Shown: piece by piece, positions 156-40,959 of the stretch | How positions within the stretch are numbered: the stretch's first letter is position 1 | How the letters are laid out: each line of letters begins with the position of its first letter | Assembly: GCF_023051145.1 (NCBI RefSeq) | Contig: NZ_JALKFS010000005.1 | Coordinates: 2,063,733 to 2,127,732 of the forward strand | Length of the DNA stretch: 64,000 nucleotides | Reading direction: 5' to 3' | DNA from: Williamsia sp. DF01-3 | GTDB taxonomy: Bacteria > Actinomycetota > Actinomycetes > Mycobacteriales > Mycobacteriaceae | Notes under the pieces: generated by a model | Seen by the model: only the letters and a program-made list of their open reading frames with translations | Told to the model about the DNA's origin: nothing | The model's database searches: none | Program-made: the position numbers and the translations under genes

Positions 156-808
156 GTGCGCGCCTGGAGCAGGGGTGACACCGGTCGCCGTGGATGGCCG
201 GCCAAGCTCGGGCCGATATCCGTTGCGGGAGGCGTCGTTACGGTACGTCCGGTCCGGCTGCGTGACGCCAGGGTGTGGAGCAGGCTTCGCATCGAGAACC
301 AGAATTCGCTGATGCCGTGGGAGCCCACGGGTGTCGGCTTGTGGTCGGCCCGGCACAACCCGGCGGCCTGGCCGGGTCTGCATTCGGTCCTGAGGGCCGA
401 GGCAAAGGCAGGGAACATGCTGCCGTTTGTCATCGAATTGGACGGCGAATACTGCGGGCAACTGACGGTGGGCAACATTCAGCGTGGCGCGCTGCGCAAC
501 GCATGGATCGGATATTGGGTGGATGCAGCGGTCACCGGACGTGGAGTGGCAACGGGCGCACTGGCACTCGGCGTCGACCACTGTTTCGGGCCGGGGGTCT
601 TCACCGGCTCGAGGCAACCGTGCAGCCTGCCAACGCGGCGTCGCTGTCGGTGCTGCACAAGGTGGGATTCCGCGACGAAGGCCTGCTCAAGCGCTACATG
701 GACGTCAACAGCGCCTGGCGGGACCATCTGTTGCTCGCGTTGACCACCGAAGATCTCACCAGCAGCGCCGTGGACACATTGATCCGCAGCGGCCACGCCA
801 CCGCCTGA
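156..808 (+). pseudogene. rimJ: GNAT N-acetyltransferase, RimJ-like, broken by one missing G
   Basis: A GNAT-family acetyltransferase (the RimJ type acetylates N-terminal alanine of a ribosomal protein). The first frame, from GTG 156, reads well through WIGYWVDAAVTGRGVATGALALGVDHCF and then turns to nonsense. The next frame continues the fold with LHRLEATVQPANAASLSVLHKVGFRDEG to the stop at 806-808. The switch falls in the G run at 593-597: five G are present and six would join the halves into one protein of about 217 residues. It follows glp by 9 bp. I infer either a sequencing error or a very recent frameshift. Confidence 0.85.
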
Positions 809-1036
809 ACTCCCGGCACCTGCGCGCAGATGCCTCTCGGCTCGCGCTGGGCGGCGGCTCTTCTCCGATCACGCGTGAGCACCCAGAGATGGAACGAATC
901 GGCCGGGACATCGGCGCGTCGGCGCTGGTTGGGCAGCGGTGAGCCATAGCCTGATTCCTATCGTCTGTTACAGGTGTGACTGACGCGTACTCGACCGGCC
1001 GGTCGGGGCGAGATTGCCGACAGGAAGGAGCTGCCC

Positions 1037-2179
1037 ATGCCGAACTCGTTGCTGTGGGTGTGTCTGGTGGCGATCTGGCTCTTTGTTCTGGTGCCGATGG
1101 TGGTGAAGTCGCGTCCCACCGTGCGCAAGACGACCGACGCCGCGATGTCGACACGCGTGCTCTACCGAGGTGGCCGGGCCATCGCCAAGACCCGTCGTCG
1201 CATGGCGGCAGGCCGTCATCCGCACGATCCCGACTGGGAACCCCCGGTGCGTGAGTATCGCAAGACCGCAAAGGCAACGGCGGCAACAGATACCGCTGAC
1301 GTCGACGACGCCACGACGACCAAGGTTCCGGCCGGCAAGTCCGAGCCTGCATCGGTCTCGGTGAAAACCGTCGCCGCTGCCGCTCAGACAAAGACGGTCG
1401 ACACCAGCGACAGTGATGCCGACGCAACCACCGACGACACGACGGTTGTGGTTGAAGACGCCGACATCGAGTCATCCGATCACCGTGACGCCGTTGCTGA
1501 GCGCGATGACGAAGATGCGGACGCAGATCGCGACGATCGGGGCGTCGAGGACGCAGACCTCGACGATGCTGAGCTCGATGACGCGGATTACGAGGACGCC
1601 GACCACGAGGACGCGGACTATGAAAACGCGGACTACGACGACGACTACGACGACGATCTCACCGACGAGGACATCAGCGCCGACGAAGCGGCGGATCAGG
1701 CGGAGCAGGACGAGGTCGCCCGTCGTGCACGTCGCGGAGGCTTCGATCCCGAGGCCGATCGCGAGCGCAGCGACAAGCGCTACAGGTTCCGCCAGCGCGT
1801 GATGGCCGTGCTCGGGGTGCTGGCGCTGCTCGGCATCGCGGCCGGCTTCTTCCTGGGTTCGGTCGGCTGGGTCATCGCCGCGGCCACGGTTGTCGCGCTG
1901 GTCGGCTACCTCGCGTTCCTGCGCCGCGCGGTGCGGAACGAACAGCGCATCCGTCGTCAGCGGATGCAGCGGCTCGCCCGGGCCAAGCGCCAGGAGGAAG
2001 AACGCCGCGCGCAGCCCGAGGTCGACCCCCGAGCCGAGGTGCCCCGCAGACTCCGTCGACCAGGCGCGATCGTGTTGGAGATCGATGACGAAGATCCGAT
2101 CTTCGACCACCTGCCGCGGTTCGAGCACCGCGAAGAGGTTGTTCGTGAACCCTCGTACCGGCGGGTGGTGGGGCAGTAG
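1037..2179 (+). CDS. glpR: Gephyrin-like molybdotransferase receptor GlpR, membrane protein
   Basis: 380 residues with a strong AAGGAG site before ATG 1037. There is one N-terminal membrane segment (LLWVCLVAIWLFVLVPMVV), a long acidic low-complexity middle with runs of Asp-Ala, Glu-Asp and Tyr (about residues 70-230), two adjacent membrane segments near 255-295 and a basic Arg/Gln/Glu-rich C-terminus. Length, topology and position two genes after glp match the mycobacterial Rv0996-type protein. In corynebacteria this is the membrane receptor that brings Glp to the division site. The family call is firm; the divisome role here is by homology. Confidence 0.8.
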   Translation: MPNSLLWVCLVAIWLFVLVPMVVKSRPTVRKTTDAAMSTRVLYRGGRAIAKTRRRMAAGRHPHDPDWEPPVREYRKTAKATAATDTADVDDATTTKVPAGKSEPASVSVKTVAAAAQTKTVDTSDSDADATTDDTTVVVEDADIESSDHRDAVAERDDEDADADRDDRGVEDADLDDAELDDADYEDADHEDADYENADYDDDYDDDLTDEDISADEAADQAEQDEVARRARRGGFDPEADRERSDKRYRFRQRVMAVLGVLALLGIAAGFFLGSVGWVIAAATVVALVGYLAFLRRAVRNEQRIRRQRMQRLARAKRQEEERRAQPEVDPRAEVPRRLRRPGAIVLEIDDEDPIFDHLPRFEHREEVVREPSYRRVVGQ

Positions 2180-2219
2180 TCCCGCCCTGTTAATCTTGTC
2201 GAGTCGCTCACGCGGCAAA

Positions 2220-2292
2220 GGGGCTATAGCGCAGTTGGTAGCGCGTCTCGTTCGCATCGAGAAGGTCAGGGGTTCGATTCCCCTTAGCTCCA
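2220..2292 (+). tRNA. tRNA-Ala(CGC), prophage integration site
   Basis: A full 73-nt cloverleaf: acceptor GGGGCTA pairs with TAGCTCC, including the G3:U70 wobble that identifies alanine tRNAs; D arm GCGC/GCGC; anticodon stem TCTCG/CGAGA with loop TTCGCAT, so anticodon CGC; T arm AGGGG-TTCGATT-CCCCT; discriminator A. CCA is not encoded. The 3' half lies inside the attL repeat, so the prophage supplies the 3' end and the tRNA stays intact in the lysogen. Confidence 0.97.
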
Positions 2293-2294: not shown

Positions 2295-2337
2295 AGAAAG
2301 TGCAGGTCAGAGGGCCTTTCTGGCCACGACCGCTGCA

Positions 2338-2359
2338 AGGCAACATTTCCAGGCAACAT
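2338..2359 (+). repeat. Probable integrase arm-type sites, left end (2 copies of AGGCAACAT)
   Basis: Two direct copies of AGGCAACAT at 2338-2346 and 2351-2359, 13 bp apart, between attL and the integrase gene. Related copies (AGGCAACA, AGGTAACA) lie just inside attR. A short repeated motif flanking both cores is what arm-type integrase binding sites look like. Function is inferred. Confidence 0.55.
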
Positions 2360-2417
2360 ATCTGTCGGTCCCCGCAGCTAAAATGCGGTGCATGTACCCC
2401 GGTTCAGGCATCAACTG

Positions 2418-3521
2418 ATGGCGTCTATCCAGGCGCGCACCCGCAAGGATGGCTCCGAGACGTGGCGTGTCCTCTGGAGACAAGGCGGCAAACAGCGCAA
2501 CGCGACGTTCGTGGAGGCCTCCGGAGCCGTCCGGTTCCGCGACCACATCGACCAGTTCGGGCCGGTCGAGGCGATGCGGATCCTCGAATTCGAGGACGCG
2601 GCACGGTCCGAGCTCACGCTGACCGAATGGCTCACCGACCACATCAACGCGCTGACTGGTGTGGAGCAGGCGACGATCAATCGATACATCTCCTATCGGG
2701 ACCGCGACATCGCGCCGTCAATTGGAAGGTTGCCGCTTTCCGCAGTGACCGAGGTGTCGATCTCTCGATGGGTCCAGGAGATGTCGACGGTGCCCAAGGG
2801 CAAGAAGGCGCCCGCCGGAAAGACGATCCAGAACAAACACGCATTTCTCTCCGGGGCGCTCAAGGCCGCGGTCCGCGCTGGCAAGATCGCGGCCAATCCG
2901 TGCGACGGCCGCAGGCTTCCGCAGACTCAGAAGCAGGAGATGGTGTTCCTCGACCGTGACGAGTTTGATCTGCTCCACTCGCACATCCCGCACGACAGGT
3001 GGAAGAACCTGGCGACGTGGCTCGTGACGACGGGGATGCGGTTCGGCGAGGCAACAGCACTCGACGCACGCGACATCGACCCAGTTGCCGGGACGTGTCG
3101 GATCAACAAGGCATGGAAGTACAGCGGCGACTACCGTCCAGAGATCGGGCCACCGAAGACTCGCAAGTCAAACCGCACGATCAACCTGCCTCCGCAGGCT
3201 TTGGCCGTCATTGATCTCTCTCGCGACGGATTCCTGTTCACCAACGGCGCGGGCTCACCGGTGCGGGCGCAGGAGTTCTACAACCTTGGCTGGAACCCGG
3301 GCCGCATTAGGGCGGCCGAGAACGGACTGACAAAGAAGCCTCGGGTGCACGACCTGAGGCACACTTGCGCGTCGTGGATGATCAACTCCGGCGTGGGGTT
3401 GCCGGTTGTGCAGGCGCACCTGGGGCACGAGTCGATCCAGACGACCATCGACAGGTACACCCACCTTGACCGTCACGCCGGAAAGACTGCGGCAGACGCG
3501 ATTGCCAGGATGCTCGACTAG
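2418..3521 (+). CDS. int: Phage tyrosine integrase (main integrase beside attL)
   Basis: 367 residues from ATG 2418; a GTG at 2388 would add ten residues, but MASIQARTRKDG is the usual start of this family. N-terminal arm-binding region about 1-60, core-binding SAM-like domain about 65-165, catalytic domain from 175. The catalytic set is visible: Arg208 (GMRFGE), Lys near 250 (TRKSNR), His311-x-x-Arg314 (HDLRH), His337 (LGHES) and nucleophile Tyr347 (DRYTHLD). It is 124 bp from attL and reads away from it, the standard position for the enzyme that carries out integration at this tRNA. Confidence 0.95.
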   Translation: MASIQARTRKDGSETWRVLWRQGGKQRNATFVEASGAVRFRDHIDQFGPVEAMRILEFEDAARSELTLTEWLTDHINALTGVEQATINRYISYRDRDIAPSIGRLPLSAVTEVSISRWVQEMSTVPKGKKAPAGKTIQNKHAFLSGALKAAVRAGKIAANPCDGRRLPQTQKQEMVFLDRDEFDLLHSHIPHDRWKNLATWLVTTGMRFGEATALDARDIDPVAGTCRINKAWKYSGDYRPEIGPPKTRKSNRTINLPPQALAVIDLSRDGFLFTNGAGSPVRAQEFYNLGWNPGRIRAAENGLTKKPRVHDLRHTCASWMINSGVGLPVVQAHLGHESIQTTIDRYTHLDRHAGKTAADAIARMLD

Positions 3522-3673
3522 TCGCCGAGCGTGCGTCGGGTGTGTCGCCGGGACACCCCGAGCTTCCGAGCAACCGTGACAGGGTCCTTGGTTCGGCGGC
3601 CGGCGCCACGGCGTTTGTGTGGTTTGCACATTGCGCAGCCGCGCCACGAGCGCGAGGGGTGATGGTTGGGCAT
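3518..3673 (-). CDS. Small basic HTH-like protein between the two recombinases
   Basis: 51 residues, ATG at 3673 preceded by GGAGCAGGT. The N-terminal half has a Cys-x-x-Cys-x-x-His pair (GCAMCKPHKRR). The C-terminal half, DPVTVARKLGVSRRHTRRTLGD, reads as a helix-turn-helix. Its stop overlaps the end of the main integrase by 3 bp, tail to tail. It lies 43 bp downstream of the second recombinase on the same strand, so the two are probably co-transcribed. Function unknown; a directionality or regulatory factor is possible. Confidence 0.6.
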   Translation of the reverse strand: MPNHHPSRSWRGCAMCKPHKRRGAGRRTKDPVTVARKLGVSRRHTRRTLGD

Positions 3674-3716
3674 ACCTGCTCCAGGGGTGACTCCGCCGAT
3701 GGCGAAGGTTTGAACG

Positions 3717-4631
3717 TTACGCCACCGCGCCGAAGTACGCGGCCAGCGCGTGGGCGCTGTGTGTGTCGAGGTTCGCGCGGCCGCGGTCGTAGAGACGGAT
3801 GGTGGTGCTGATGTCGGCGTGCCTGGCCGAGAGTTGCACCTGCCGCAGGGGGACGCCGGCGTCGATGGAGTGGACGACGAAGCTGTGCCGCAGGGTGTGC
3901 GGTGAGATCTTGCCGGTGATCCCGGCGGCCTTGGCGCAGCGCTTCACCACGCGGTCGGCCGAACGCCTCGTCATCCGTGTGCCGTCCCGCCTCAGTAGCA
4001 GCGGGCCCACGGTCCGGCCGGCGATCACCGCGTCGATGGCTCGCATCACGACAGGCGGCTGGGGGATGAGCGCGGCCTTGCCGCCCTTGCCGATGAACCG
4101 CAGGCACCGGTGGGCCTTCGCGACCACGTTGCAGTCTGCGATATCGAGGTCGCACGCCTCGGAGACCCGGACGCCGAGGTAGCCCATGATGACGACCAGC
4201 GCGTAGTCGGTCGGGGTCGAGTCGTACGCCGCGCGGACCAGTCGCTGCATCTCTTCGCGGGTGAGCGCCGCTCGTTCTGATTGGTCGACAGTGACTTTCG
4301 GTCGGCGCACCAGCCGGGCCGGGTTCTTCACGATCAGCTCGTCATCGATGGCGACCTCGTACAGCTGCGACAGGGTGCCGATCCGCCGGCTGATCGTCGG
4401 GGCCGCGTTGCCGCGCTCCTCACGCAGGTACCGCATGTACATCTCGAGGTGCGGCCGACGGACACCGGTGATCGGGTGGATGCCGTGGCGCTCGCACCAC
4501 TGGCAGAAGATCCGAAGGTCTTGGCGGTAGGCGGCTTGGGTGTTCGAACCGTCCCAGCGCATCAGGAACGATTCGATGAACAGGTGCAGGTCGTCGAGTG
4601 GAACGACCGTCGACAGGGTAGCGTCAGGCAT
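3717..4631 (-). CDS. Second tyrosine recombinase (XerC/D-like length)
   Basis: 304 residues from ATG 4631, with GGAGGG upstream. N-terminal SAM-like domain about 12-105 (DDLHLFIESFLMRW...TQAAYRQDL). The catalytic domain has Arg155 (GVRVSE), Lys near 182 (GKGGK), His245-x-x-Arg248 (HTLRH), His271 (ARHAD) and Tyr281 (RLYDR), so all active-site positions are present. It lacks the AP2-like arm-binding N-terminus of the main integrase and resembles XerC/D and transposon-type recombinases. It is divergent in family from the neighbouring integrase. It could be dimer resolution, an alternative integrase or the remnant of a nested element. Confidence 0.9.
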   Translation of the reverse strand: MPDATLSTVVPLDDLHLFIESFLMRWDGSNTQAAYRQDLRIFCQWCERHGIHPITGVRRPHLEMYMRYLREERGNAAPTISRRIGTLSQLYEVAIDDELIVKNPARLVRRPKVTVDQSERAALTREEMQRLVRAAYDSTPTDYALVVIMGYLGVRVSEACDLDIADCNVVAKAHRCLRFIGKGGKAALIPQPPVVMRAIDAVIAGRTVGPLLLRRDGTRMTRRSADRVVKRCAKAAGITGKISPHTLRHSFVVHSIDAGVPLRQVQLSARHADISTTIRLYDRGRANLDTHSAHALAAYFGAVA

Positions 4632-4665
4632 CAGCCCTCCAGGTGTCACAGACTTGGGTGGGTCA

Positions 4666-4701
4666 GACCCCGGCAGGTGTTACCAGCACCTGTGCGGGGT
4701 C
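4666..4701. promoter_or_regulatory. Nested inverted repeat upstream of the second recombinase
   Basis: GACCCC pairs with GGGGTC and, inside it, CAGGTG pairs with CACCTG around the 7-nt centre TTACCAG. It sits 35 bp upstream of the recombinase start codon. It could be an operator, a 5' UTR hairpin, or a core site for that recombinase, since tyrosine recombinase cores have 6-8 bp centres. There is no T run, so it is not a terminator. Confidence 0.45.
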
Positions 4702-4937
4702 GCTCGCTTTCTGGGGCGAGATCGTCAGCCTACCGGTGAGAGCTGTTGTGCGCCACGCAGTTTGATGATGGATTTAGTTCACCCGCCGCCCGTGGCGCGT
4801 AGGTGGTGGGCGCTTATAGCAGATAGGGGTGACACCCGAGGCCAGCATGTTTGACATGTTGCGCGCGCGCGACCACACTTGTCGTTAGTTGTCAGGGTGT
4901 CGCGTTCAAACGTCGCAGTGTGTTCGAAACACCAGAG
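4702..4937. other. Noncoding spacer upstream of second recombinase
   Basis: No convincing gene. It contains an alternating GC stretch near 4859-4872 and a minus-strand -10-like CTATAA near 4815-4820 that could serve the recombinase gene. I see no protein homology on either strand. Confidence 0.4.
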
Positions 4938-4980
4938 AAGGACCGGATCTCCACCTCAGAGATGGAGATCCGGTCCTTTT
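4938..4980 (+). terminator. Strong intrinsic terminator with no evident upstream gene
   Basis: A perfect 16-bp stem (4938-4953 with 4963-4978), 9-nt loop, and the sequence ends in TTTT. It is oriented for rightward transcription, yet no plus-strand protein gene ends here. It may end an unannotated small RNA or insulate the recombinase region from rightward read-through from the integrase. Confidence 0.85.
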
Positions 4981-5139
4981 GCTGCCAAAAATGCGCCCGC
5001 GGGAAGCGGCGCGACCTGGGACTTTCATGAATGTGATTCGCAACGTGTTGTGTCGCCAGTAAAAGACACGCACAAGGTGTAGGGTTCTGAACTGCGACGT
5101 TTGTAAAGATCGACCCGACAACTGAAAGGAGTCCTTCGA

Positions 5140-5187
5140 TGGACCCCTGCTTACTTCATCCTCGTGAACTGGCTAGCGCCGCGTAGG
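5140..5187 (+). CDS. Possible 15-residue peptide with a strong ribosome-binding site
   Basis: ATG 5140 follows AAAGGAG with 7-nt spacing and reads MDPCLLHPRELASAA then TAG. The start signal is far better than expected by chance. The peptide is short and no gene follows on the plus strand, so this may be a leader peptide, the stump of a deleted gene, or coincidence. Confidence 0.3.
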
Positions 5188-5196
5188 CGTATCCGG

Positions 5197-5424
5197 TTAC
5201 TGCGCCAAGGCGCCGCACTCCATGCACTTCGGCACTCCGCAGTAGCCCGTGACCCGCCCGTCACCGGCCAGCGTGACAGCTCCCTCGGCTTCGTCCAGGC
5301 CCGCGGCCCGCCCGTCGAGTTTGAACCATTCACCGCCACACTCGCGGCAGTGCAAGGGTTCAGATGCATCGGCTGGCGCATTCCTGCGGTGGCTGTTCAG
5401 ATCGATGACCAAGGAGTCTGGCAT
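5197..5424 (-). CDS. Small zinc-ribbon protein
   Basis: 75 residues from ATG 5424. Cys pairs HCRECGGEWF (about residue 25) and CGVPKCMECG (about 62-71) form a treble-clef or zinc-ribbon pattern seen in many small actinophage proteins. Function unknown. It stands alone on the minus strand between two noncoding regions. Confidence 0.55.
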   Translation of the reverse strand: MPDSLVIDLNSHRRNAPADASEPLHCRECGGEWFKLDGRAAGLDEAEGAVTLAGDGRVTGYCGVPKCMECGALAQ

Positions 5425-5804
5425 GTCATTGCCAATCCGTAGTGGCCGGGGCCCTTTGGGTCCCGGAGACCGGTGGAAGACCGGTCAACGAGTTCCGTTC
5501 ACCGGAAGTTACGTCGACCAGCATGGTTACGTTTCCTTCCACGAGGCGCACGCAACCTTCCCGCCCTGTATCGGGAGAAAAGGTGCGTGTGCGTACCGGT
5601 CGCCGTATCGCGGTGACCGCGAGACAGCTTAACTAGCTGCTCTCCAACTGACTCTGGAGGGGTTTGTGGTTGCCGCCCAGCCCCTCCAGAGTCCCCATAG
5701 TGCCACCTTCGGCAAACCCCGCGCATGTTTTCGGAGGCGCGAGTGGAAATTGTCACTCGATCGCTACTCCTCGGCGGGAGCGTGACAACCCTTCAACACG
5801 AAGA
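5425..5804. promoter_or_regulatory. Noncoding region dense in dyad symmetry
   Basis: No supported gene. Hairpin 5446-5466 (9-bp stem, TTT loop); direct repeat GTTACGT at 5508-5514 and 5526-5532; perfect 7-bp dyad TCGCGGT-G-ACCGCGA at 5608-5622; CAGCT-TAACT-AGCTG at 5625-5639; 13-bp inverted repeat 5650-5662/5681-5693 with an 18-nt loop. The density suggests operators or an origin-like or partition-like site, but none of these is recognised. Confidence 0.45.
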
Positions 5805-5833
5805 AACGCCCCCACCCGTAGGTGGGGGGCGTT
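5805..5833 (-). terminator. Intrinsic terminator of the leftward small-gene operon
   Basis: Hairpin AACG-C5-ACC / GGT-G6-CGTT with loop CGTA, followed on the minus strand by TTTCTT. It ends the minus-strand operon 6824-5952. One arm has five C and the other six G, so either one base is bulged or one C is missing from the sequence. Confidence 0.75.
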
Positions 5834-5951
5834 CTGGCCTGCGAGGGTCCGGGGAGAAGTCGGCGGACAACACTTCAGACGGTCCCGGCGGTGTTGAGGT
5901 TCCCCCAAAGTGCCGTCAAAGTCGGGGCATAATTTGGCTATTGGGCGGTGC

Positions 5952-6263
5952 TCAGCGCACCGGCGTCAGCTTCACAATGGACGGCGCAGCGGGTGCCGGT
6001 GCGAAGTGGTCCTCGTGGTCCTCGCAGACAAGGTGGCCGAACCCGTCGTCGTACGATGGGTACGCCTTGCACACTTCGCAGCCCCGGCATTCCGGGCAAA
6101 GGAACTGACCGTCAGAGTTTTCGGCCCAGTGGTCATCCTCGGAGACCCATTCGCGGACTTCTTGCTGGCCGCCCAGCGCTGAGAAGTCACCCCAGTACTC
6201 GTCCTGCACGGTCTTGCAGACGTCGCACTTCGCTCGGTAGTAGGTGACTTCATCGATGGCCAT
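5952..6263 (-). CDS. Small acidic zinc-ribbon protein
   Basis: 103 residues from ATG 6263; the start overlaps the upstream stop by one base. Cysteines occur as CDVC (about 13), CPECRGCEVC (about 56-65) and CEDH (about 80), enough for two zinc sites. The protein is rich in Asp/Glu. It is the last gene of a four-gene minus-strand operon. I do not recognise a functional family. Confidence 0.6.
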   Translation of the reverse strand: MAIDEVTYYRAKCDVCKTVQDEYWGDFSALGGQQEVREWVSEDDHWAENSDGQFLCPECRGCEVCKAYPSYDDGFGHLVCEDHEDHFAPAPAAPSIVKLTPVR

Positions 6264-6493
6264 TACTTCTCCTGCTCTCGTGCTGCCAACCACTCCGCAT
6301 ACCCCGGCTTGCGCTGCGTCGCCTTCACGTACGCATCGAACCGCTTCCGCACGACGTCGGTCAGAGTGTCCTCGTTGAACTCGGCCGCCAGGCGGGCCTG
6401 CTCGTACAGCTCGTCGGCGATACGGAAGTTCCGGTTGCTCGTCTTCGGCTGGTTCGGCACACCTGGGAGGGTATCGGGTGTACTTACGGTCAC
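6263..6493 (-). CDS. Small DNA-binding-like protein (ribbon-helix-helix or antitoxin-like)
   Basis: 76 residues from GTG 6493, overlapping the preceding stop. The core KTSNRNFRIADELYEQARLAAEFNED followed by LTDVVRKRF has the strand-helix-helix pattern of Arc/MetJ or CopG-type repressors, as found in many ParD-like antitoxins. No toxin partner is evident next to it. Its role may be local repression of this operon. Confidence 0.55.
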   Translation of the reverse strand: MTVSTPDTLPGVPNQPKTSNRNFRIADELYEQARLAAEFNEDTLTDVVRKRFDAYVKATQRKPGYAEWLAAREQEK

Positions 6494-6624
6494 GACTCAG
6501 ACTCCATCTGATCTGCTGCCGCATTGAGCGCGTGAGCGATATTCGTGGGTAAACCCGTGTCGAAGATCCACGCTGCGTGAGCGCGCAGGGACGCCGGGGT
6601 GACCTCGATATCGTCGGCGGCCAT
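6490..6624 (-). CDS. Hypothetical 44-residue protein
   Basis: Reads MAADDIEVTPASLRAHAAWI and ends NAAADQMESES. ATG 6624 overlaps the upstream stop and its own stop overlaps the next start (ATGA-type coupling), which supports real translation. The LRAHAAWIFDTGL segment resembles the start of short mycobacterial prophage proteins. Function unknown. Confidence 0.55.
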   Translation of the reverse strand: MAADDIEVTPASLRAHAAWIFDTGLPTNIAHALNAAADQMESES

Positions 6625-6824
6625 CACAGCTCACCGTCGCAAACGCCGTCACAGTTGAAGCACTTGGAGCTTTCCTGCCAGACGCCCGTCTCGCTGTACC
6701 AGCCTTCGCTCCACGTGTGCCGACGGCCGAACCTGCACGTGTCGGTGTGCGTGGGGCAGCAAGTGCGCGGTGCCAGCTGCTTGCGGGTCCGGGTCGGCTT
6801 GATGCGAATCACTGTGTCTGACAT
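6624..6824 (-). CDS. Hypothetical 66-residue Cys-rich protein
   Basis: First gene of the operon 6824-5952. Cysteines at TCCPTHTDTC and CFNCDGVC suggest a zinc site. The N-terminus is basic (RIKPTRTRK). Function unknown. Confidence 0.5.
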   Translation of the reverse strand: MSDTVIRIKPTRTRKQLAPRTCCPTHTDTCRFGRRHTWSEGWYSETGVWQESSKCFNCDGVCDGEL

Positions 6825-6906
6825 AGCTCAACAGTACCCGGTGTACTTACGCAGCGCAACGCCGGTGTACTTACGGATGTACTTACACCCGGCGGCATAC
6901 CGGACG

Positions 6907-7194
6907 TTATGGGCGGAGTGTGTAGTCGCGCTCAAACGTTTCCCCATCCGTCACCGTGAATCGATATTGTTCAAACACGGACTGCGTGCGGCGGCCGTGG
7001 TTGATAATCCAGTCGCCCCGACGTGCGTGGACGCCATAGGCGCTGATCTCCATCGTCGAATAGTCAATTCGGACATCCATGCAGCGCAAGATGACCAGCC
7101 AGTCATAGACTCGCTCGGCTGTCCGCTCCCACACCTGAGCCGCTTCGACTCGCTCGCCGTTTGGCCCGTCGAAAGACTGCACCACTTCGTTCAT
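6907..7194 (-). CDS. Hypothetical 95-residue protein, divergent from 7286
   Basis: ATG 7194 (MNEVVQSFDG). No membrane segment or known motif; the composition is mixed alpha/beta. It is divergent from the 220-residue gene starting 92 bp away, so the two probably share a control region. Base composition is visibly less GC-rich than the structural genes, which suggests an accessory cargo gene. Confidence 0.5.
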   Translation of the reverse strand: MNEVVQSFDGPNGERVEAAQVWERTAERVYDWLVILRCMDVRIDYSTMEISAYGVHARRGDWIINHGRRTQSVFEQYRFTVTDGETFERDYTLRP

Positions 7195-7285
7195 GGCGTT
7201 GATTCTCCACCACAACACCGGGGGGGGCGATCGTCTGTCGCGTCCACTACTCCGGCAATGATCGCATGCCGCTACTCTGCTCGCT

Positions 7286-7948: not shown

Positions 7949-7961
7949 CTCGTACGAACTG

Positions 7962-7986
7962 ACGCCAATCCGATATGGGTTGGCGT
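7962..7986. terminator. Terminator between convergent cargo genes
   Basis: Stem ACGCCAATCC / GGGTTGGCGT with a 5-nt loop, followed by TATTAG, 13 bp after the stop of the 7286 gene and before the end of the convergent 8148 gene. The modest T tract allows termination mainly in the plus direction. Confidence 0.65.
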
Positions 7987-8147
7987 TATTAGTTGCCTCT
8001 GGGTACTACCGAGTGTTCGTCGAAGTAGTAGGTGCTCCTCAGGGGTGTCCGTCTGATTGCTCATGGTGACCCGATCGCACAACGGTGCCGAACGAACTGA
8101 ACGTCGCCGCCGGGCACGATCGACAACCTCGCTACGAGGTGTAGTGG

Positions 8148-9281: not shown

Positions 9282-9381
9282 GACCTTCGGATGGCTCACC
9301 GCCACCGAGTTCTGGTATGGTAGCGAAGTCCACCTACTCGTGGGCGCTAGAGCGGCATATTGCGGCCGTGAACCATTACTT

Positions 9382-9415
9382 GCCCCCAGGCCTACTGGCC
9401 GGGGGCTTTGTATTT
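9382..9415 (+). terminator. GC-rich hairpin with T tract
   Basis: Stem GCCCCC-A-GGCC / GGCCGGGGGC with loop TACT and one bulged A, followed by TTTGTATTT. It is oriented rightward in the 222-bp gap between the divergent 9281 and 9504 genes. No protein gene clearly ends here; a short plus-strand transcript or small RNA would be needed to give it a purpose. Confidence 0.6.
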
Positions 9416-9503
9416 GGTCAGTACTGCCAGTGTCAGCGTTGCGCAAGTGACCTGGATGTCGCGAAGCAGGCGAAAAACGGCGTAGGTCTGGGAGTATCGT
9501 GGT

Positions 9504-9728: not shown

Positions 9729-9743
9729 CCACTCCCGAGGCGT

Positions 9744-31732: not shown

Positions 31733-31734
31733 GA

Positions 31735-34306: not shown

Positions 34307-34325
34307 AGCTCACACCTCCCTTCGG

Positions 34326-35828
34326 TCAGAACGAGGCTTCGAAGACATCGAAGCCAGAATCAGCGGAGTCGGATTCGCCAAAATCAGGAGGCGCTACGGG
34401 TGCCTGCTTCGGGCCGAGCCCGAACGTCAGGAGCCCCCAGCGGGCCAGGCTCATGGTGGTCAGCGGGACTGCATCGGGCCCAACCTTTTTGTCCCAGGCG
34501 AAGTCGCCCTGCGGCATGTACCGCTTCTCGGCCGTCCGGAGCGCGTCGTCTATGCACTCCTGGCCGGTGTGGGACAGCTGCTCGGCGTCTGCGTCGTCCT
34601 CGAATCCCAGGCAGGCCGAGGCCATCTGGGGAGCGTTCGTGATCTCTGGCTCAATGCCCTGGTTGATCAGCAACTGCTGCAGCACATTCGCACCGGACTT
34701 GCGGTCAATAACGAGGACGACCGGATCCCACTCGGCCACCACCAGGACGATCATCGCGACCATCGAGTCGAGGGTGGCGCGGCCGAAGTACCCGATCTCG
34801 ACGTGTGTGCGACCCTCGGCCGTCGCCTGCGCTGAACCCAGCGCCCAAGTCGACCCGTCGAGCGAACGGTCCACCGCGAGTGCGATTGATCCAGTGAGCT
34901 GGGGCTCCCGGTTAACCAGATCGCCGAACCTGTCGAGGTCGAACACCACCTCGTCGGCGGCCTCGTCCAGCCAGATGCCCAGGCCTTCGCGAAGGAACGA
35001 CTCTGGACTAAGCTTCCGCTTCAACCGGAGCATCGACTCGCGTGGCGTGCGATGCGGATACGACGGGTTCGCCGCTTTCCAGGTGTCGGGAGAGTCCGGA
35101 TTTACCCCGGGCTCGACGCCGAACTCGATCCACACGCCGTCGGTGAGCGTCCCCGCCCAGGCCGCGTCACGCATCCGCGTGAACGCCTCGGATGGGTCAG
35201 TGGGCTTCGGTGGGGTGCCGATGTAGAACGCAAGACCGAACTTCGACGTGTTCATTGTTGCCGTCATCGCGTCGACCGCGTTCTCGGACATGATCTGCGC
35301 TTCGTCGGCCACGATGATGTCGACGCCCGGGATGCCTCGACCGAAGCCCCGCTCGCGGGCCCCGAACAGGACTCGCGAGCCGTTGCGGAACCGGATCTCT
35401 TCGGTGCCTGCCCCGGTGAACGTCTGCTCGATGTACGGTGCCACCCGCAGCCGCTCCGCGAACGCCAGCATCGACAGGAACGTCTCACCGTGCGTTCGCG
35501 CGTGGTGCGCCGACCACACCGTCAGCGTGCCAGGACGATTGATGCTGAGGCCAAAGATCAACCCCGTCATCCAGTGCGTCTTGCCCGCCTGCCGACAGAT
35601 CGACATCCCGACACCGTCGATCGTCGCCGCCATCGTCCCGTCAGCACGCTTCGCGAGCGCGAGACGGCCAGCCTGGTTCTGCCACGGGTCGAAGGTGAGA
35701 CCGAGTTTCGTCCGGCAGGTGTGTTCCACCGCCGGCCACATCGTCGAAACGATTCCCGTGGGCGCGGCGACCTTTCGGGCTACCTCAGAGAGCTTCGGCG
35801 TCCCAGGCTTCGTCTTCGACGACGACAC
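34326..35828 (-). CDS. terL: Terminase large subunit
   Basis: 500 residues. Residues 44-60 give LTFDPWQNQAGRLALAKR; Walker A-like SICRQAGKTHW (76-86); Walker B-type DIIVADEAQIM near 166; nuclease-domain acids in ALAVDRSLDGSTWALG and VVLVIDRKSGANVLQQ. ATP-driven motor and headful or cos nuclease that packages phage DNA through the portal. Overlaps the small subunit by 44 bp. Confidence 0.94.
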   Translation of the reverse strand: MSSSKTKPGTPKLSEVARKVAAPTGIVSTMWPAVEHTCRTKLGLTFDPWQNQAGRLALAKRADGTMAATIDGVGMSICRQAGKTHWMTGLIFGLSINRPGTLTVWSAHHARTHGETFLSMLAFAERLRVAPYIEQTFTGAGTEEIRFRNGSRVLFGARERGFGRGIPGVDIIVADEAQIMSENAVDAMTATMNTSKFGLAFYIGTPPKPTDPSEAFTRMRDAAWAGTLTDGVWIEFGVEPGVNPDSPDTWKAANPSYPHRTPRESMLRLKRKLSPESFLREGLGIWLDEAADEVVFDLDRFGDLVNREPQLTGSIALAVDRSLDGSTWALGSAQATAEGRTHVEIGYFGRATLDSMVAMIVLVVAEWDPVVLVIDRKSGANVLQQLLINQGIEPEITNAPQMASACLGFEDDADAEQLSHTGQECIDDALRTAEKRYMPQGDFAWDKKVGPDAVPLTTMSLARWGLLTFGLGPKQAPVAPPDFGESDSADSGFDVFEASF

Positions 35829-36096
35829 CCTCGGCGTCCTCCTTGGCCGCCTGAGCCTGCTTCGCTTCCAGCGCCTGTATCTCCTTCGAGATCATCGCGA
35901 GCTGTCGATGCAGCGCAGCCTTCGCAGGTCCACGCTCGTCGGGAAGCGAAGTCACGATCTCACGCCGCTGAGCACGAAGAATCTCCAGGTAATTGCCCTG
36001 TTCGACCGCCTCGGACAGCGTCAATGGCGCGGCCGGAGGCGCTGGAGGGGCCTCGTCAGGGGCCACACCGCGAAGATGGGAGCGGTTCGTTGCCAC
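35785..36096 (-). CDS. terS: Terminase small subunit
   Basis: 103 residues. A Pro/Ala-rich start then a helical body LSEAVEQGNYLEILRAQRREIVTSLPDERGPAKAALHRQLAMISKEIQALEAK, the pattern of mycobacteriophage TerS. It directly precedes and overlaps TerL. Confidence 0.8.
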   Translation of the reverse strand: MATNRSHLRGVAPDEAPPAPPAAPLTLSEAVEQGNYLEILRAQRREIVTSLPDERGPAKAALHRQLAMISKEIQALEAKQAQAAKEDAEGVVVEDEAWDAEAL

Positions 36097-36202
36097 AGCA
36101 CGCCCCCTTCAGAAACGAAAAAATGCGATAAATAGATCAGCTGACTGCCCCGTAGGGAGTCAGGCCCCCACCCCCTCGGATATTTTTCGGGGGTGGGGTG
36201 GG

Positions 36203-36574
36203 TCAGGTGGTTGGCCAGGGCCAGTTCATGGCGGTGTGCCCTACGAGGCGGCCAGCGGGCGTCTTGGCTGTCTCGGTGGGGCTTTCGCCTGTGATGGCTG
36301 GTCGTAAGTGGTCTCGGCTGCCGTCGCCGCGTTGTTTGTTGCACCGTCCGTGGAGCAGGCGGTCGGCTTTGGTGCCGCCGGTGGCTCGTGTGTGGGTGTG
36401 GTCGGCTGCGAGTACTTCTCGGTCCCAGTTGCGTTCGGCCTCGAGGTACATGGGCTTGTTGCACCACCAGCAGGGTGTGCCGTCGACGTGCGTGCGCTTG
36501 AGTCTGGCTGCCTGGCGTTGGTGGTCGTAGCCCAGACCCTTCTGGGTCGTGGTCTTGGTTCTGGTGCTGGCCAT
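36203..36574 (-). CDS. HNH endonuclease (packaging-associated)
   Basis: 123 residues from ATG 36574. Core: GTPCWWCNKPMYLEAERNWDREVLAADHTHTRATGG, LLHGRCNKQRGDG, with the CxxC zinc pair and DHxxxR-x-G of the HNH fold. HNH proteins just before the terminase are often needed for DNA cleavage during packaging in HK97-like phages, so this one is more likely functional to the virion than a homing enzyme. Confidence 0.85.
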   Translation of the reverse strand: MASTRTKTTTQKGLGYDHQRQAARLKRTHVDGTPCWWCNKPMYLEAERNWDREVLAADHTHTRATGGTKADRLLHGRCNKQRGDGSRDHLRPAITGESPTETAKTPAGRLVGHTAMNWPWPTT

Positions 36575-36897
36575 CAACCGGTGATGGTGGACGGATCAAC
36601 ACCACGTGATCGCAGGGCGCGGGCTACCTGACCGTTGGGGTCTGGCTGCCACTGTTCGCCCATAACGCGGGTGAAGTGGCTGAGCGCTTCGCCGATGGTG
36701 GTCTCCATCGCTGCTGTGTTGCCAGTGCGGTTGAGCCGCTGCACCTTCTCGATGCGGGGGAGGACGTGGCGTCGGAGTGCGGCGATCTGGCTGTGGTCGG
36801 CTGCCCCTTCACCAACGGCAGCGCTGATGCCGGCGACGAGCAGGCCGAACTGGTGTTGCGGGTCAGTCGTCGGGATGCTGCTGACGGCAGGCGTCAT
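36574..36897 (-). CDS. Hypothetical 107-residue protein
   Basis: Helical: HQFGLLVAGISAAVGEGAADHSQIAALRRHVLPRIEKVQRL. Translationally coupled to the HNH gene (TGATG). No motif recognised; possible packaging accessory from position. Confidence 0.5.
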   Translation of the reverse strand: MTPAVSSIPTTDPQHQFGLLVAGISAAVGEGAADHSQIAALRRHVLPRIEKVQRLNRTGNTAAMETTIGEALSHFTRVMGEQWQPDPNGQVARALRSRGVDPSTITG

Positions 36898-37250
36898 CGG
36901 CTGATCTCTGGGCGCGGACCCATCTTGAGGAGCTGGCCGCCTGAGGGCAGCGGCCGCGGATTGGTCTCGCTCTGCAGCTCATCGAAGATCGGGGTTCCGG
37001 GGTCTATCTGCTCATCGTCGCCAGCAATCGGAATGGTCACGGTATGCCGCACCAGCCTGTCGTTCTCCGCGACCAGCTGCCCGTCGGGCGCCTGCGTGAA
37101 GCAGGTCAGCATACTGCAATCGCGGGTCAGGGTGAGTTGCTCGATACGGTCGGCCTTCGGGTCTAAGCCCATCAATGCCATCGCGGCCATGAGTCGACTG
37201 TGGCTGATCTCTGTCGGCATCATCCTCGTCGTCCTTGTCTCGCTGTCCAT
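36894..37250 (-). CDS. Hypothetical 118-residue protein
   Basis: SRLMAAMALMGLDPKADRIEQLTLTRDCSMLTCFTQAP then an extended Pro-rich end. Overlaps the neighbours by 4 and 31 bp. Not recognised. Confidence 0.5.
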   Translation of the reverse strand: MDSETRTTRMMPTEISHSRLMAAMALMGLDPKADRIEQLTLTRDCSMLTCFTQAPDGQLVAENDRLVRHTVTIPIAGDDEQIDPGTPIFDELQSETNPRPLPSGGQLLKMGPRPEISR

Positions 37251-37492
37251 CGGTCGAGTTCACCCTCGGTGACCCGCATGCCGATGTCCTCGGCCAGTGC
37301 ATCGAACACCTCGGTGGGTGTGCCGGTCGCGGCTGCGATGGCGTCGAGCACGAGCTGTGGTTCGTTGTCGGGGATGGGTACGGGTTCGAACCCGACGGTG
37401 GTTTTGTCGTCGGTCCACAGAACCCCAGCGGCTGGTGTGCGGACGTTGGTCCATCGGCCAGGGCCACGTCGAGAAGGGGCGGACGCTGCCAT
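37220..37492 (-). CDS. Hypothetical 90-residue protein
   Basis: A basic N-terminus then VGFEPVPIPDNEPQLVLDAIAAATGTPTEVFDALAEDIGMRVTE. The helical end resembles small actinophage early proteins. Function unknown. Confidence 0.5.
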   Translation of the reverse strand: MAASAPSRRGPGRWTNVRTPAAGVLWTDDKTTVGFEPVPIPDNEPQLVLDAIAAATGTPTEVFDALAEDIGMRVTEGELDRWTARQGRRG

Positions 37493-37953
37493 CAGGCCGC
37501 CCGCCGGTCAACGTCGTTGAAGGCATGAAGCCTGTTACGTGTGGCTACGACCCACGCTTGGGCCTCTTCTATTGTCGAGAAGTACTGACGGTGTAGCTTG
37601 CCGTCGTGAAGTACGCGGCCGCGCCAGCACTTGCCCTGCTTGTGGTAGTCAACGCCCCTCACCCCGGAGCGGGCCGTGGTCGATCCAGTGTGATTCTCGA
37701 TGTTCTGCTTCGGGGTTGCCAGTCGCAGGTGGTCGGGATTTACGCAATGCCGCACGTGACAGATGTGATCAACCAGCATTCCAGTGGGAATCGGGCCATG
37801 GTGTAGCTCGTACGCAAATCGATGAACACCTACCTGGCGTTTGCTGACCCGGAACTTGCCGTACCCATGTGAATCCCGGGCACCTAGCCAGAGCCAGCAG
37901 CCATCACCTTCAGTCCTGATGAACTTCGCGGCGAAGCGTTCGGTGGCGTTCAT
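37492..37953 (-). CDS. HNH homing endonuclease with C-terminal AP2-like domain
   Basis: 153 residues. The HNH_3-type nuclease contains GCWLWLGARDSHGYGKFRV, HRFAYELHHGPIPTGMLVDHICHVRHCVNPDHLRLAT. The C-terminal SGVRGVDYHKQGKCWRGRVLHDGKLHRQYFSTIEEA is an AP2/ERF DNA-binding domain. The combination is a classic mobile homing nuclease. Confidence 0.88.
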   Translation of the reverse strand: MNATERFAAKFIRTEGDGCWLWLGARDSHGYGKFRVSKRQVGVHRFAYELHHGPIPTGMLVDHICHVRHCVNPDHLRLATPKQNIENHTGSTTARSGVRGVDYHKQGKCWRGRVLHDGKLHRQYFSTIEEAQAWVVATRNRLHAFNDVDRRAA

Positions 37954-38276
37954 CGCGCGTCGATAACTGCCTGTCGCACGAAGCAGTCCTTCGCCTCGAG
38001 CAGTTTGCGTAGGCCGGTGGTCAGCTCGGGTCCGTCACCCAGCAGGCCAACTAGGTAGGCCGCGGCCTCGGCAAGCTGCTTGCTCACCTCCTGTAGATGC
38101 GGCGGCAGGTGCTCGTATTCGAACAAGTTCAGCAAGTGCGTCGTGCCGGGATGGCGAGACTCGGGCGTTGCGTCCACGTCGACCTCCATCGAAGTAGGTT
38201 GGCCCGCCTGCACTCTGGGGTGCCGATGCTCGGGGAAGCGACGGGCCAAGTCCTGCACCGCAGCGCGCAGCAACAC
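37950..38276 (-). CDS. Acb2/Tad1-hairpin-like protein, candidate cyclic-nucleotide sponge
   Basis: 108 residues from GTG 38276; ATG 38189 would give 79 residues, closer to the family, and neither has a clear ribosome site. The C-terminal 60 residues, LFEYEHLPPHLQEVSKQLAE then GPELTTGLRKLLEAKDCFVRQAV, show the H-L-P start, a long helix and the E-x-x-x-x-L-x-K-L-x-E-A helix. That resembles phage Acb2-type helical hairpins, which bind CBASS or Thoeris signalling nucleotides. I know the pattern but cannot confirm membership, so the anti-defence role is inference. Confidence 0.5.
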   Translation of the reverse strand: MLLRAAVQDLARRFPEHRHPRVQAGQPTSMEVDVDATPESRHPGTTHLLNLFEYEHLPPHLQEVSKQLAEAAAYLVGLLGDGPELTTGLRKLLEAKDCFVRQAVIDAR

Positions 38277-38445
38277 CCTCGCCCGGTGTGAGAGCTGGGG
38301 TCATGGGATGTGCTTTGTCCGTCGAAAGGCACGAAAGCCCGGAGGTCACGTGCTGCGGTGAAGATGAGAATGGCCGCTCGCTGGTGAACCCAGGGCGGCC
38401 GACAGCGATAGCGTACCGCAGACCCCTGACGTAAGGCCAGATCTG

Positions 38446-39123
38446 TCAAGCACGGTTGCGTTGGGCGTGTCTCTTGTGCGCGTCGAGCACGTCACCGAGC
38501 CGGTAGAACCTCGTGCCGGTATCCGGGTCCTCGGAGACGTGGGTGAGTCCCGCCTGCTTGCATAGTGTTCGCATTCGCCTGGCGTTCAACCCCTTCCCGA
38601 CCTTGTCGAGTTTGTGAGCCAGCTTCTCGACGGTGGCGACGGTGACGATCTGCCGGTTCGCTTCTTGCACCATGGCTTCGTCGATGGTGTATTCGCGCTC
38701 GGTCGTGTTCATGGATCGGGCGCATCGGTCGACGATGCGGCACAGCTTCTTGAAGATCTCTGCGCCGTCTTCCATGACTGCAATGGCGATGCGGTAGCGA
38801 ATGAGCCACTTGGCCAACGCGGTTGGGTATGCGCTGCCTTGGTAGCTGAGCCCGCGCACTTCACAGATGTGGCGTACGGCGGTGGTTAGCTCGTTCTGTA
38901 GTTCGTCGAGGAGTACCTCCACGTGCAGGCCGTATGGTTCACGCGGTCCGGGCTGGGGCCGGCGGATACCTAGCCCGTTGTCGCTGGTGCGGGACTGTCC
39001 GTCGGTGAGGGAGATGGCCATCCTGCGTTCGAGGTCGGTGACCTCTTCGAGCTTCTCCTTGAGGTAGTCGAGCTCGGCTCGGGTGACGGTGAGATCGTCG
39101 GCGTTCGACTGCTGCTGGGTCAC
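38446..39123 (-). CDS. Hypothetical helical protein
   Basis: 225 residues from GTG 39123. N-terminal coiled coil (LTVTRAELDYLKEKLEEVTDLERRMAIS), a helical middle (VLLDELQNELTTAVRHICEVRGL, ALAKWLIRYRIAIAVMEDG) and a C-terminal winged-helix-like part (ARRMRTLCKQAGLTHVSEDPDTGTRFYRLGDVLD). Likely DNA-binding in early phage functions; no named family. Confidence 0.6.
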   Translation of the reverse strand: MTQQQSNADDLTVTRAELDYLKEKLEEVTDLERRMAISLTDGQSRTSDNGLGIRRPQPGPREPYGLHVEVLLDELQNELTTAVRHICEVRGLSYQGSAYPTALAKWLIRYRIAIAVMEDGAEIFKKLCRIVDRCARSMNTTEREYTIDEAMVQEANRQIVTVATVEKLAHKLDKVGKGLNARRMRTLCKQAGLTHVSEDPDTGTRFYRLGDVLDAHKRHAQRNRA

Positions 39124-39497
39124 TGCGTCACTTCGATTTCCAGCCACAGTTGGCCCTTCCCGGTGGTCGATTGGTGGTGGATCTTCGGCATGCGGTCGGT
39201 GACGAATCGGGGGTCGTCGTCTTCGGTGAGTCCGTAGTCGACGAGTCCGTCGACGCATGCTTTCTGTGTGGGTGTGAGGTTGATCGGGTCGGCGGTGCGG
39301 TGGACGCGCGGCGCGTAGTGGAGCTGGACTATTGCGTGAGAGACGTTGCGCGGCAGCTTGAGTGACTTGGCCAGGTAGTAGGTTGCTGACCGCACGCCAC
39401 GAGTTTCGGCCGCCTTCTTGTGTCGGTTCATCCGCTGGTTGAGCGTGAGTGGTGGCGTCTCGTACGGCAGGGGGATGGTGAGCGTCGGCGCGGTCAC
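39120..39497 (-). CDS. RusA-like Holliday junction resolvase
   Basis: 125 residues from GTG 39497. The pattern PLTLNQRMNRHKKAAETRGVR followed by VQLHYAPRVHRTADPINLTPTQKACVDGLVDYGLTEDDDPRFV matches RusA-type nucleases, which use an Asp-rich centre (here D near 70 and the EDDD group). It cuts Holliday junctions during phage recombination and replication. Confidence 0.68.
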   Translation of the reverse strand: MTAPTLTIPLPYETPPLTLNQRMNRHKKAAETRGVRSATYYLAKSLKLPRNVSHAIVQLHYAPRVHRTADPINLTPTQKACVDGLVDYGLTEDDDPRFVTDRMPKIHHQSTTGKGQLWLEIEVTQ

Positions 39498-39805
39498 AGG
39501 GTGATCACCGACAGGATGACGTCGCCGAGCTGTCGGAGGCGTTTGCCGCAGCCGCCGCATTGGCGTCCGTGTCGGCAGGCCGAGGCGAGTTCACGTTCGA
39601 TCGACTGGCGGAGTGTCTCGAAGCATTCGCTGCAGAGGAGCGCGCTGACGTTGTCGCAGGCGTACAGGTCGTTGTCGCGGGGTGCGTGGTAGCGGATGCG
39701 GAGGTTGGCCGGCGGGGTCTCGTCGTGGCAGGTGCACTCACACTGTGGCGACTCGTCGAGGGATGCGACGTCGAGCGGGGCGACGGAGTGGGTGGGGACG
39801 CTCAT
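39494..39805 (-). CDS. Hypothetical Cys-rich protein
   Basis: 103 residues with a zinc-binding look: CECTCHDE, YACDNV, CSECFETL, CRHGRQCGGCGKRL. It starts at ATG 39805, overlapping the upstream stop, and is coupled to the RusA-like gene. Function unknown. Confidence 0.55.
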   Translation of the reverse strand: MSVPTHSVAPLDVASLDESPQCECTCHDETPPANLRIRYHAPRDNDLYACDNVSALLCSECFETLRQSIERELASACRHGRQCGGCGKRLRQLGDVILSVITL

Positions 39806-40062
39806 GCCTGCCTCGCTTTGGCGAGTTCGGCTCTGGCTGCAGCGCGTGCTTCTTGCCGCCTGGCTGCCTCTCTCGCTGATTCTCCGGCGTTTTCCGTGCC
39901 GGAGGTTGTGTCGGGCTTCTGACGTTTGATGTGGGGCATATGCATCGGCTGCTTCGAGATGACGTTCACGCAGGGATCTCCTGGTCCGGTTTCGCATTCG
40001 GGTTCGGGGCAGGCCCGGGTGATGGCGTTGCCGATGAGGTAGGCGTCAGGGATGTCAGTCAT
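39802..40062 (-). CDS. Small zinc-finger-like protein
   Basis: 86 residues from ATG 40062. The motif ACPEPECETGPGDPC then HMPHIKRQKP follows the C..C...G..C...H..R pattern of a small DNA-binding zinc domain common in actinophages and restriction proteins. The tail is Ala/Arg-rich helix (about 55-86). Start overlaps the upstream stop. Confidence 0.6.
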   Translation of the reverse strand: MTDIPDAYLIGNAITRACPEPECETGPGDPCVNVISKQPMHMPHIKRQKPDTTSGTENAGESAREAARRQEARAAARAELAKARQA

Positions 40063-40321
40063 GCCGACTCCGTCTGGGGGTGGGTGCATTTGACAGCTGG
40101 CTCGACATCGATGAGCCACTCGAAGTCGTCGCAGAGCGGGCAGTTCGCCGCTAGTGCGCGTCGGACGCGTTTCGCTTCCTCGGCGATCCTTGTCCGTTCG
40201 GTGTCCCAGGCTTCTCGTCCTTGCCTGGCGTCACGGCACGCGCCGCACGGCGGCGGGAAGGTCTCGTTGATGTGTTTCGAACATTTCGAGGGGGGCGGCT
40301 GACCCTCGTAACGTTCCCCAC
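40059..40321 (-). pseudogene. Small zinc-binding early protein, apparently frameshifted near its start
   Basis: The body is CSKHINETFPPPCGACRDAR, then NCPLCDDFEWLIDVEPAVKCTHPQTESA to TGA at 40059, a known type of actinophage early protein. Its frame has no start codon. GTG 40319-40321, immediately after the upstream stop, enters the correct frame if the G6 run at 40290-40295 is given one more base, producing MGNVTRVSRPPSKCSKH. This is therefore a likely one-base omission, as in three other genes here. Confidence 0.65.
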
Positions 40322-40959
40322 TTACGTAACCCCCTCTGGAGTTGGAGTAACAGGAGTAGGAGGTGGAGTGCGACCACCCTTGGAGCCAGGGTTAGAGCCA
40401 GGATGGCCGTAACCCTTAGCGGTGGGGTTAGAGGCAGGGTTGGCGGTGGGGTTGCCGCCACCGTTGGGGCCGGGGTTGTACGGGGGTATCGAGGTGGGGT
40501 CGATGGCGTTCTGGCTGAGCATGTTCGCGACTGCCGGCCTCGCCCAGGATGTCGATTCGGGGTGTTTGGTGGCGAGTTTCGCGACCTCGAAAACGATGAC
40601 CCCACGCAGCGTCCTGGAGGCCAAATCGCCGCGCGCATTCGCGACCGTGACCGCCATGTTCGGCGTCCTCCACAGCCCGTCGTGCTTGATCCAGGACCGG
40701 AGAAGGAACTCCTCGGTCTCCGTGTCGACGAACAGGAACAGTCGCTCGGACAGCTCGATGGCAGCGAGCTCGATGTCGTCGGCCGTCCATTCCGATGCGC
40801 GGTTCGCGAGCCGTCCCGGGTGCCAGGGGCGGCGCCGCAGAACGACAGTTGCGGCGCGGTATAGAGCACGAAGTACAGGTGTTGTGCTCGCCAGCTGAGG
40901 TCGAGCCAGTCGTCGTCGCCCCAGATGTCGAGGTTGACCCTCGCGTGGTCACGTGCCAT
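40322..40959 (-). pseudogene. Replication-type winged-helix protein, broken at a G4 run
   Basis: From ATG 40959 the sequence MARDHARVNLDIWGDDDWL, then SWRAQHLYFVLYTAPQLSFCG, is a well-known actinophage protein start (often called replication initiator or HTH protein). After CGAAP the frame fails. One more base in the run 40826-40829 restores WHPGRLANRA, then RLFLFVDTETEEFLLRSWIKHDGLWRTPNMAV and a Pro/Asn/Gly-rich tail of repeated NPGSN and NPTA ending at 40322. About 213 residues when joined. Confidence 0.75.

What the first reader, a model, noticed from the sequence alone, without database searches (positions are those of the whole stretch)
593..40829. Recurrent single-base omissions in G/C runs: probable systematic sequence error
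Four otherwise good genes (593-597, 32817-32822, 40290-40295, 40826-40829) each regain one continuous, conserved reading frame if one base is added to a run of four to six G or C. All defects have the same sign and the same sequence context. Independent real mutations would not be so uniform. If so, the prophage may be intact and the genes functional.
Basis: partly seen in the sequence, partly recalled or inferred. Interest (0 to 1): 0.7.

Follow-up and report, generated by a model that had tools for sequence, protein, structure and literature searches.

The report
False one-base gaps in genome assembly
The broken genes seen here are almost certainly reading mistakes in the deposited genome rather than real mutations, because the same kind of one-base gap also cuts genes that no bacterium can live without.

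Summary
The window is part of a 5.25-Mb contig of a Williamsia-like actinobacterium; its prophage spans about 2.3-57.5 kb. Over 595,678 bases shared with two close relatives (about 509 genes), 43 genes are frameshifted only in this genome, against 7 and 9 specific to the relatives; 42 of its 43 one-base events are deletions. rpoC and secA, whole in both relatives, are split here, which a living cell could not tolerate.

Details need correction. Place 3 (40290-40295) is not: phage homology runs through it. Places 3 and 4 belong to one RepA-like gene whose second break lies near 40334-40385. Runs of four to six G/C are only part of the context: six-runs are hit often (7 of 45), four-runs never (0 of 2687); 34 of 42 deletions lie in runs of three or less, enriched at CCGG sites. 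This suggests a long-read, probably nanopore, assembly without accurate polishing. Prophage decay need not be invoked. Verdict: artefact, low interest.

The parts
273..808 (+). Chromosomal acetyltransferase-like gene (178 aa in relative G006; start placed by alignment with it), apparent frameshift at 593-597
   Evidence: one base missing relative to G006, G004 and G003; predicted as one gene in G006 and G004
31738..33005 (-). Prophage capsid maturation protease, two frames that meet at about 32808-32820
   Evidence: three phage proteases match in frames -3 and -2; one frame in L177
40125..40959 (-). Prophage RepA-like replication initiator gene split in three frames: 40953-40831, 40825 to about 40385/40370, and about 40358/40334 to 40125
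   Evidence: four phage homologues of 324-335 aa, three of them matching in all three frames and BearBQ in the first two; two shorter homologues match the third piece only
40290..40295 (-).
2300..57500 (.). Prophage: absent between collinear flanks in G006 and G004
   Evidence: gap in the alignment at about 2293-57525 (G006) and 1614-57544 (G004); integrase genes at 2388-3521 and 3717-4649
43653..45065 (-). Prophage C5-cytosine DNA methyltransferase gene, open throughout; one candidate source of a modified motif
   Evidence: PF00145; ShiLan homologue matches in one frame 44987-43656

Best explanation
The frame breaks are errors of the assembly, not mutations. The record loses single bases at a low rate, 42 coding deletions in 595,678 comparable bases (shown). 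The losses are concentrated at six-base G/C runs and at CCGG/GCCGGC-type sites, with a remainder in ordinary sequence (shown). The genome was probably assembled from long reads (one contig of 5.25 of 5.59 Mb; inferred). The most likely cause (inferred) is nanopore basecalling that shortens G/C homopolymers and misreads bases in a motif that is modified in this strain, with no high-accuracy polishing. The prophage has about as many breaks (3 found) as this rate predicts for 55 kb (about 4), so it need not be decaying.
For:: three blocks, 595,678 bases shared by own, G006 and G004, about 509 genes. Genes with a net frameshift: own 43, G006 7, G004 9. One-base signs in these: own 42 deletions and 1 insertion; G006 3 and 4; G004 4 and 2; own has the fewest lineage-specific substitutions (11,155 of 41,318); 43 of 59 frameshifted genes against that share gives p about 3e-13, and 42 of 43 by sign p about 1e-11. 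Six-base G/C runs in shared sequence: own 38, relatives 62 and 74 (five-base runs 608, 603, 611); of six core genes sought (rpoC, rpoB, dnaE, valS, secA, gyrA), rpoC and secA are split in own and none of the six in G006 or G004; rpoC lacks exactly one base against both relatives; context classes; prophage protease and RepA-like gene. (passages only): nanopore consensus errors are reported mainly in homopolymers (PMC8011154) and at methylated motifs (PMC6591954).
Against: No raw reads, sequencing platform or accession were available. 18 of 34 short-run coding deletions lie outside CCGG. The CCGG enrichment is weaker outside the first block (2 of 7 and 3 of 8, p 0.14 and 0.035; GCCGGC 1 of 7 and 2 of 8, p 0.057 and 0.002), the motif was first seen in pooled data, and the event windows were up to two bases longer than the background windows. 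PMC10687267 (passages) reports mismatches, not deletions, at modified motifs. In non-coding DNA the deletion bias is slight (45 deletions, 34 insertions; G006 55 and 47, G004 67 and 40), as expected if real indels dominate there. Four of the six core genes are whole. Some of the 43 breaks may be real.
Confidence: 0.96

Rival explanations
1. Real mutations: the prophage and scattered host genes are decaying by replication slippage in a strain prone to deletions.
For: Gene decay is common in prophages (general knowledge); G/C runs are slippage-prone; the window sites show net losses.
Against: rpoC and secA are broken in the same way. Sign ratio 42:1 in coding DNA while own has the fewest lineage-specific substitutions. 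The prophage has about the rate of the chromosome. 34 of 42 coding deletions lie in runs of three or shorter.
Confidence: 0.03
2. Some breaks are programmed or phase-variable frameshifts with biological function.
For: The tail assembly chaperone is annotated as a two-piece joined gene in BaxterFox, Twinkle and LonelyBoi; that this is programmed frameshifting is general knowledge.
Against: The protease and RepA-like genes are single open frames in the phage homologues examined, and the acetyltransferase is one predicted gene in G006 and G004. Genes of many different families are affected (28 of 40 searched had a family match).
Confidence: 0.01
3. Within the error reading: the error comes from another chemistry (uncorrected PacBio CLR, 454 or Ion Torrent) and not from nanopore modified-base misreading.
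For: These also give homopolymer indels (general knowledge); the platform is not known here.
Against: Clustering of short-run deletions at CCGG/GCCGGC (16 of 34 and 8 of 34; background about 0.097 and 0.009) fits motif-linked errors reported for nanopore (passages).
Confidence: 0.25

Closest known systems
Systematic indel errors of nanopore-only bacterial assemblies (Homopolish, PMC8011154; passages seen)
   Same: Single-base indels that shift reading frames; not removed by read consensus; visible by comparison with relatives
   Different: Here the coding events are almost purely deletions and 34 of 42 lie in runs of three or fewer
Modified-motif consensus errors (Dcm in PMC6591954; GCAGC/GCTGG in PMC10687267; passages seen)
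   Same: Errors gather at a short motif that a strain may modify
   Different: The motif here is CCGG/GCCGGC-like and the errors are deletions; in PMC10687267 they are mainly mismatches. Modification was not shown here
Gene-fragmenting errors in long-read assemblies (Kastor, PMC12007338; search listing and start of abstract only)
   Same: False pseudogenes in small genomes detected by comparison
   Different: No correction was made here

Membership tests
Systematic assembly error (false indels) | Excess frameshifts specific to one record against near relatives | tested here: met
   43 genes against 7 and 9, about 509 compared
Systematic assembly error (false indels) | One-sided sign | tested here: met
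   42 of 43 one-base coding events are deletions
Systematic assembly error (false indels) | Essential single-copy genes hit | tested here: met
   rpoC and secA split, 2 of 6 core genes sought; rpoC checked by alignment, secA by match coordinates only
Systematic assembly error (false indels) | Reads disagree with the consensus | not testable with these tools
   no reads held
Nanopore homopolymer error | Error rate rises steeply with run length | tested here: met
   G/C runs: 0 of 2687 at four, 1 of 517 at five, 7 of 45 at six
Nanopore modified-motif error | Errors cluster at one motif | tested here: met
   CCGG 16 of 34 and GCCGGC 8 of 34 over three blocks; outside the first block 5 of 15 and 3 of 15; not a fully blind test
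Nanopore modified-motif error | The motif is modified in the strain | not testable with these tools
   two C5-cytosine methyltransferase loci and one N4/N6 methyltransferase in own; G006 matched neither family, G004 the C5 family only; targets unknown, other methyltransferase families not sought
   8 of 42 coding deletions are in runs of four or more

The most novel reading that the evidence does not exclude
The deletions record an uncharacterised DNA modification at a CCGG/GCCGGC-type motif in this Williamsia strain, laid down by the prophage's own C5-cytosine methyltransferase or by the second C5 methyltransferase locus, so that assembly errors act as an accidental methylation map and the prophage marks its host's genome.
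Probability: 0.2. Interest if true: 0.35.

Novelty: not a real feature. Interest (0 to 1): 0.15.

Why it matters
Anyone using this record would call some 8% of genes pseudogenes and the prophage defective when neither is shown. It also shows a cheap test for such records: compare the sign of frameshifts with two near relatives and look at rpoC.

Tried and rejected
Rejected: simple homopolymer shortening as the single cause. Rejected: place 3 as a break in a separate small gene; in the phages compared that stretch belongs to the C-terminal part of the RepA-like protein. Rejected: a further break in the prophage C5 methyltransferase; Pfam matched only its N-terminal half, but the ShiLan homologue matches in one frame over 44987-43656.

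Led nowhere: a restriction partner beside the second C5 methyltransferase (one search lists ORFs only; not followed further); naming of the exact strain or platform. GATC, GCGC, CGCG and GGCGCC showed no significant enrichment in any block; GGCC did in two of three, which may follow from its overlap with CCGG sites. 19 phage ORFs were flagged as split: six are protease or RepA homologues, three are integrases that match two separate integrase genes, and by my reading of strand and frame the other ten are shadow ORFs.

Rows dropped before a count: of 93 own-specific one-base deletions, 42 are coding and net-frameshifting and 45 lie outside genes of both relatives; the other 6 entered neither count.

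Full report
Setting. The window is G000:C5:2063733-2127732 of a 5,592,969-base genome in six contigs; the contig holding it is 5,250,048 bases. The nearest genomes found are G006, G004 and G003, 95-96% identical at the window's left end. The host is therefore Williamsia-like, and the first of those titles looks like a mislabel. Both flanks are collinear with G006 and G004, and about 2.3-57.5 kb of the window is missing there: the prophage.

Checking the four places. Place 1 is a chromosomal acetyltransferase-like gene (the family name is my reading of the sequence; NCBIfam gave no match at E 1e-25). It lacks one base against G006, G004 and G003. The run of five G is in this record only; the longest G/C run there is 3 in each relative, so it is not a shortened run. 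Place 2 is the capsid maturation protease: three phage homologues (BaxterFox, Walrus, Howe) match in two frames that meet at 32808-32820, with an offset that fits one missing base. The gene is in one frame in a prophage of another genome (L177). Places 3 and 4 are one gene. Phage RepA-like proteins of 324-335 aa match in three frames: 40953-40831, 40825 to about 40385/40370, and about 40358/40334 to 40125 (Ruthy, Mbo4 and Fairfaxidum show all three, though Fairfaxidum's second piece ends at 40487; BearBQ shows the first two; the shorter Vasanti and Wocket proteins match the third only). Place 4 sits at the first junction. Place 3 lies inside the third piece, whose homology passes through it; the second junction is upstream, at about 40334-40385, in a poorly conserved linker, so it cannot be placed exactly. 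Eleven phage loci were then compared with the window: 147 ORFs of 90 aa or more matched, 19 were flagged as split, and only the protease and RepA homologues among these represent genes broken in the window. Prophage genes without a homologue in those loci were not tested.

Comparison with relatives. If the breaks are systematic errors, they should occur along the chromosome, carry one sign, and ignore gene importance. Own sequence in three blocks (844,000 bases in all, window included, of a 5.25-Mb contig) was aligned with G006 and G004; 595,678 bases were shared by all three, with about 509 G006 genes. Identity in the first block was 95.6% and 95.5%. An event was assigned to the genome that differed from the other two, and counted as coding if it lay in a predicted gene in both of the other two. 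Genes with a net frameshift: own 43 (24, 9 and 10 by block), G006 7, G004 9. One-base events in these: own 42 deletions and 1 insertion (plus one deletion of two bases), G006 3 and 4, G004 4 and 2. Own also has the fewest lineage-specific substitutions (11,155 against 14,925 and 15,238), so the excess is not due to a longer branch (p about 3e-13; sign p about 1e-11). In non-coding DNA own shows 45 deletions and 34 insertions (G006 55 and 47, G004 67 and 40), as expected if natural indels dominate there. The gene finder was home-made (codon-usage score) and the 509 rests on a slightly different coverage rule than the 43, so the proportion is approximate.

Essential genes. Six core families were sought in the three genomes. 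rpoC is one frame of 1319 aa in both relatives and two frames in own; an alignment shows exactly one base missing against each relative. secA is one frame of 949 aa in the relatives and two matches in own whose coordinates are offset by one base (not aligned further). rpoB, the main dnaE, valS and gyrA are whole in own. A second dnaE-like gene is also split. That RpoC and SecA are indispensable is established knowledge. Hence at least some of these deletions cannot be real, and the simplest reading is that nearly all are errors. NCBIfam was run on the G006 counterparts of 40 of the 43 affected genes: 28 had a family match at E 1e-25 and 12 had none. Matches above the curated cut-off include a succinate dehydrogenase iron-sulfur subunit, peptide chain release factor 3, glycerol kinase, L-glutamate gamma-semialdehyde dehydrogenase, the type VII secretion protein EccD and an efflux transporter of the DHA2 family.

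Context of the errors. Among 42 coding deletions, G/C runs were hit in 0 of 2687 four-runs, 1 of 517 five-runs and 7 of 45 six-runs; 34 lie in runs of three or shorter. Own has 38 six-base G/C runs in shared sequence where the relatives have 62 and 74; five-base runs are equal (608, 603, 611), and longer ones are few (2, 1 and 3). The short-run class is enriched at CCGG (11 of 19, 2 of 7, 3 of 8 by block; background about 0.097) and at GCCGGC (5, 1 and 2; background about 0.009). The motif was seen first in pooled data, so the blocks are not a blind test, and the event windows were up to two bases longer than the background ones; the two smaller blocks alone give 5 of 15 and 3 of 15. The rpoC deletion has CCGG within 5 bases. 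Window place 1 has CCGG at the homologous spot in two of three relatives; place 4 in two of four phage homologues; place 2 in none of three.

Mechanism. Passages seen in three papers report that nanopore systematic errors are mainly homopolymer indels that shift frames (PMC8011154), that consensus errors concentrate in Dcm methylation motifs (PMC6591954), and that unknown lineage-specific modifications can spoil assemblies at short motifs, there mainly by mismatches (PMC10687267). Own carries two C5-cytosine methyltransferase loci, one of them in the prophage (window 43653-45065), and an N4/N6 methyltransferase gene in the prophage (41378-42340). G006 matched neither family and G004 the C5 family only; other methyltransferase families were not sought. 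So a modified-motif cause is plausible but unproven, and the targets of these enzymes are unknown.

Consequence. At 42 deletions per 595,678 bases, about 4 would be expected in 55 kb of prophage, and 3 were found. The prophage shows no more damage of this kind than the rest of the record, so there is no evidence here that it is defective; whether it is functional is untested. The finding is a real pattern with an ordinary cause.

Noticed in passing
G006:C3 (NZ_JNYV01000003.1), L139: The public record titled Kitasatospora arboriphila NRRL B-24581 is about 95-96% identical to this Williamsia-like genome at DNA level and looks mislabelled.
   Followed up: partly
window 41378-42340 and 43653-45065: The prophage carries two DNA methyltransferase genes, one N4/N6 type and one C5-cytosine type (470 aa).
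   Followed up: partly
window 2388-3521 (+) and 3717-4649 (-): Two tyrosine integrase genes lie side by side at the left end of the prophage; phages Twinkle and LonelyBoi also have two annotated.
   Followed up: no
window 26689-27288 (-): Tail assembly chaperone gene; BaxterFox, Twinkle and LonelyBoi annotate a joined two-piece version, which must not be counted as an error.
   Followed up: no
G000:C5:2360403-2363029: A second dnaE-like gene, one frame of 1096 aa in G006 and G004, is split in this record.
   Followed up: partly
window 7220-7227: A run of eight G, the longest homopolymer in the window, in a stretch without predicted genes.
   Followed up: no
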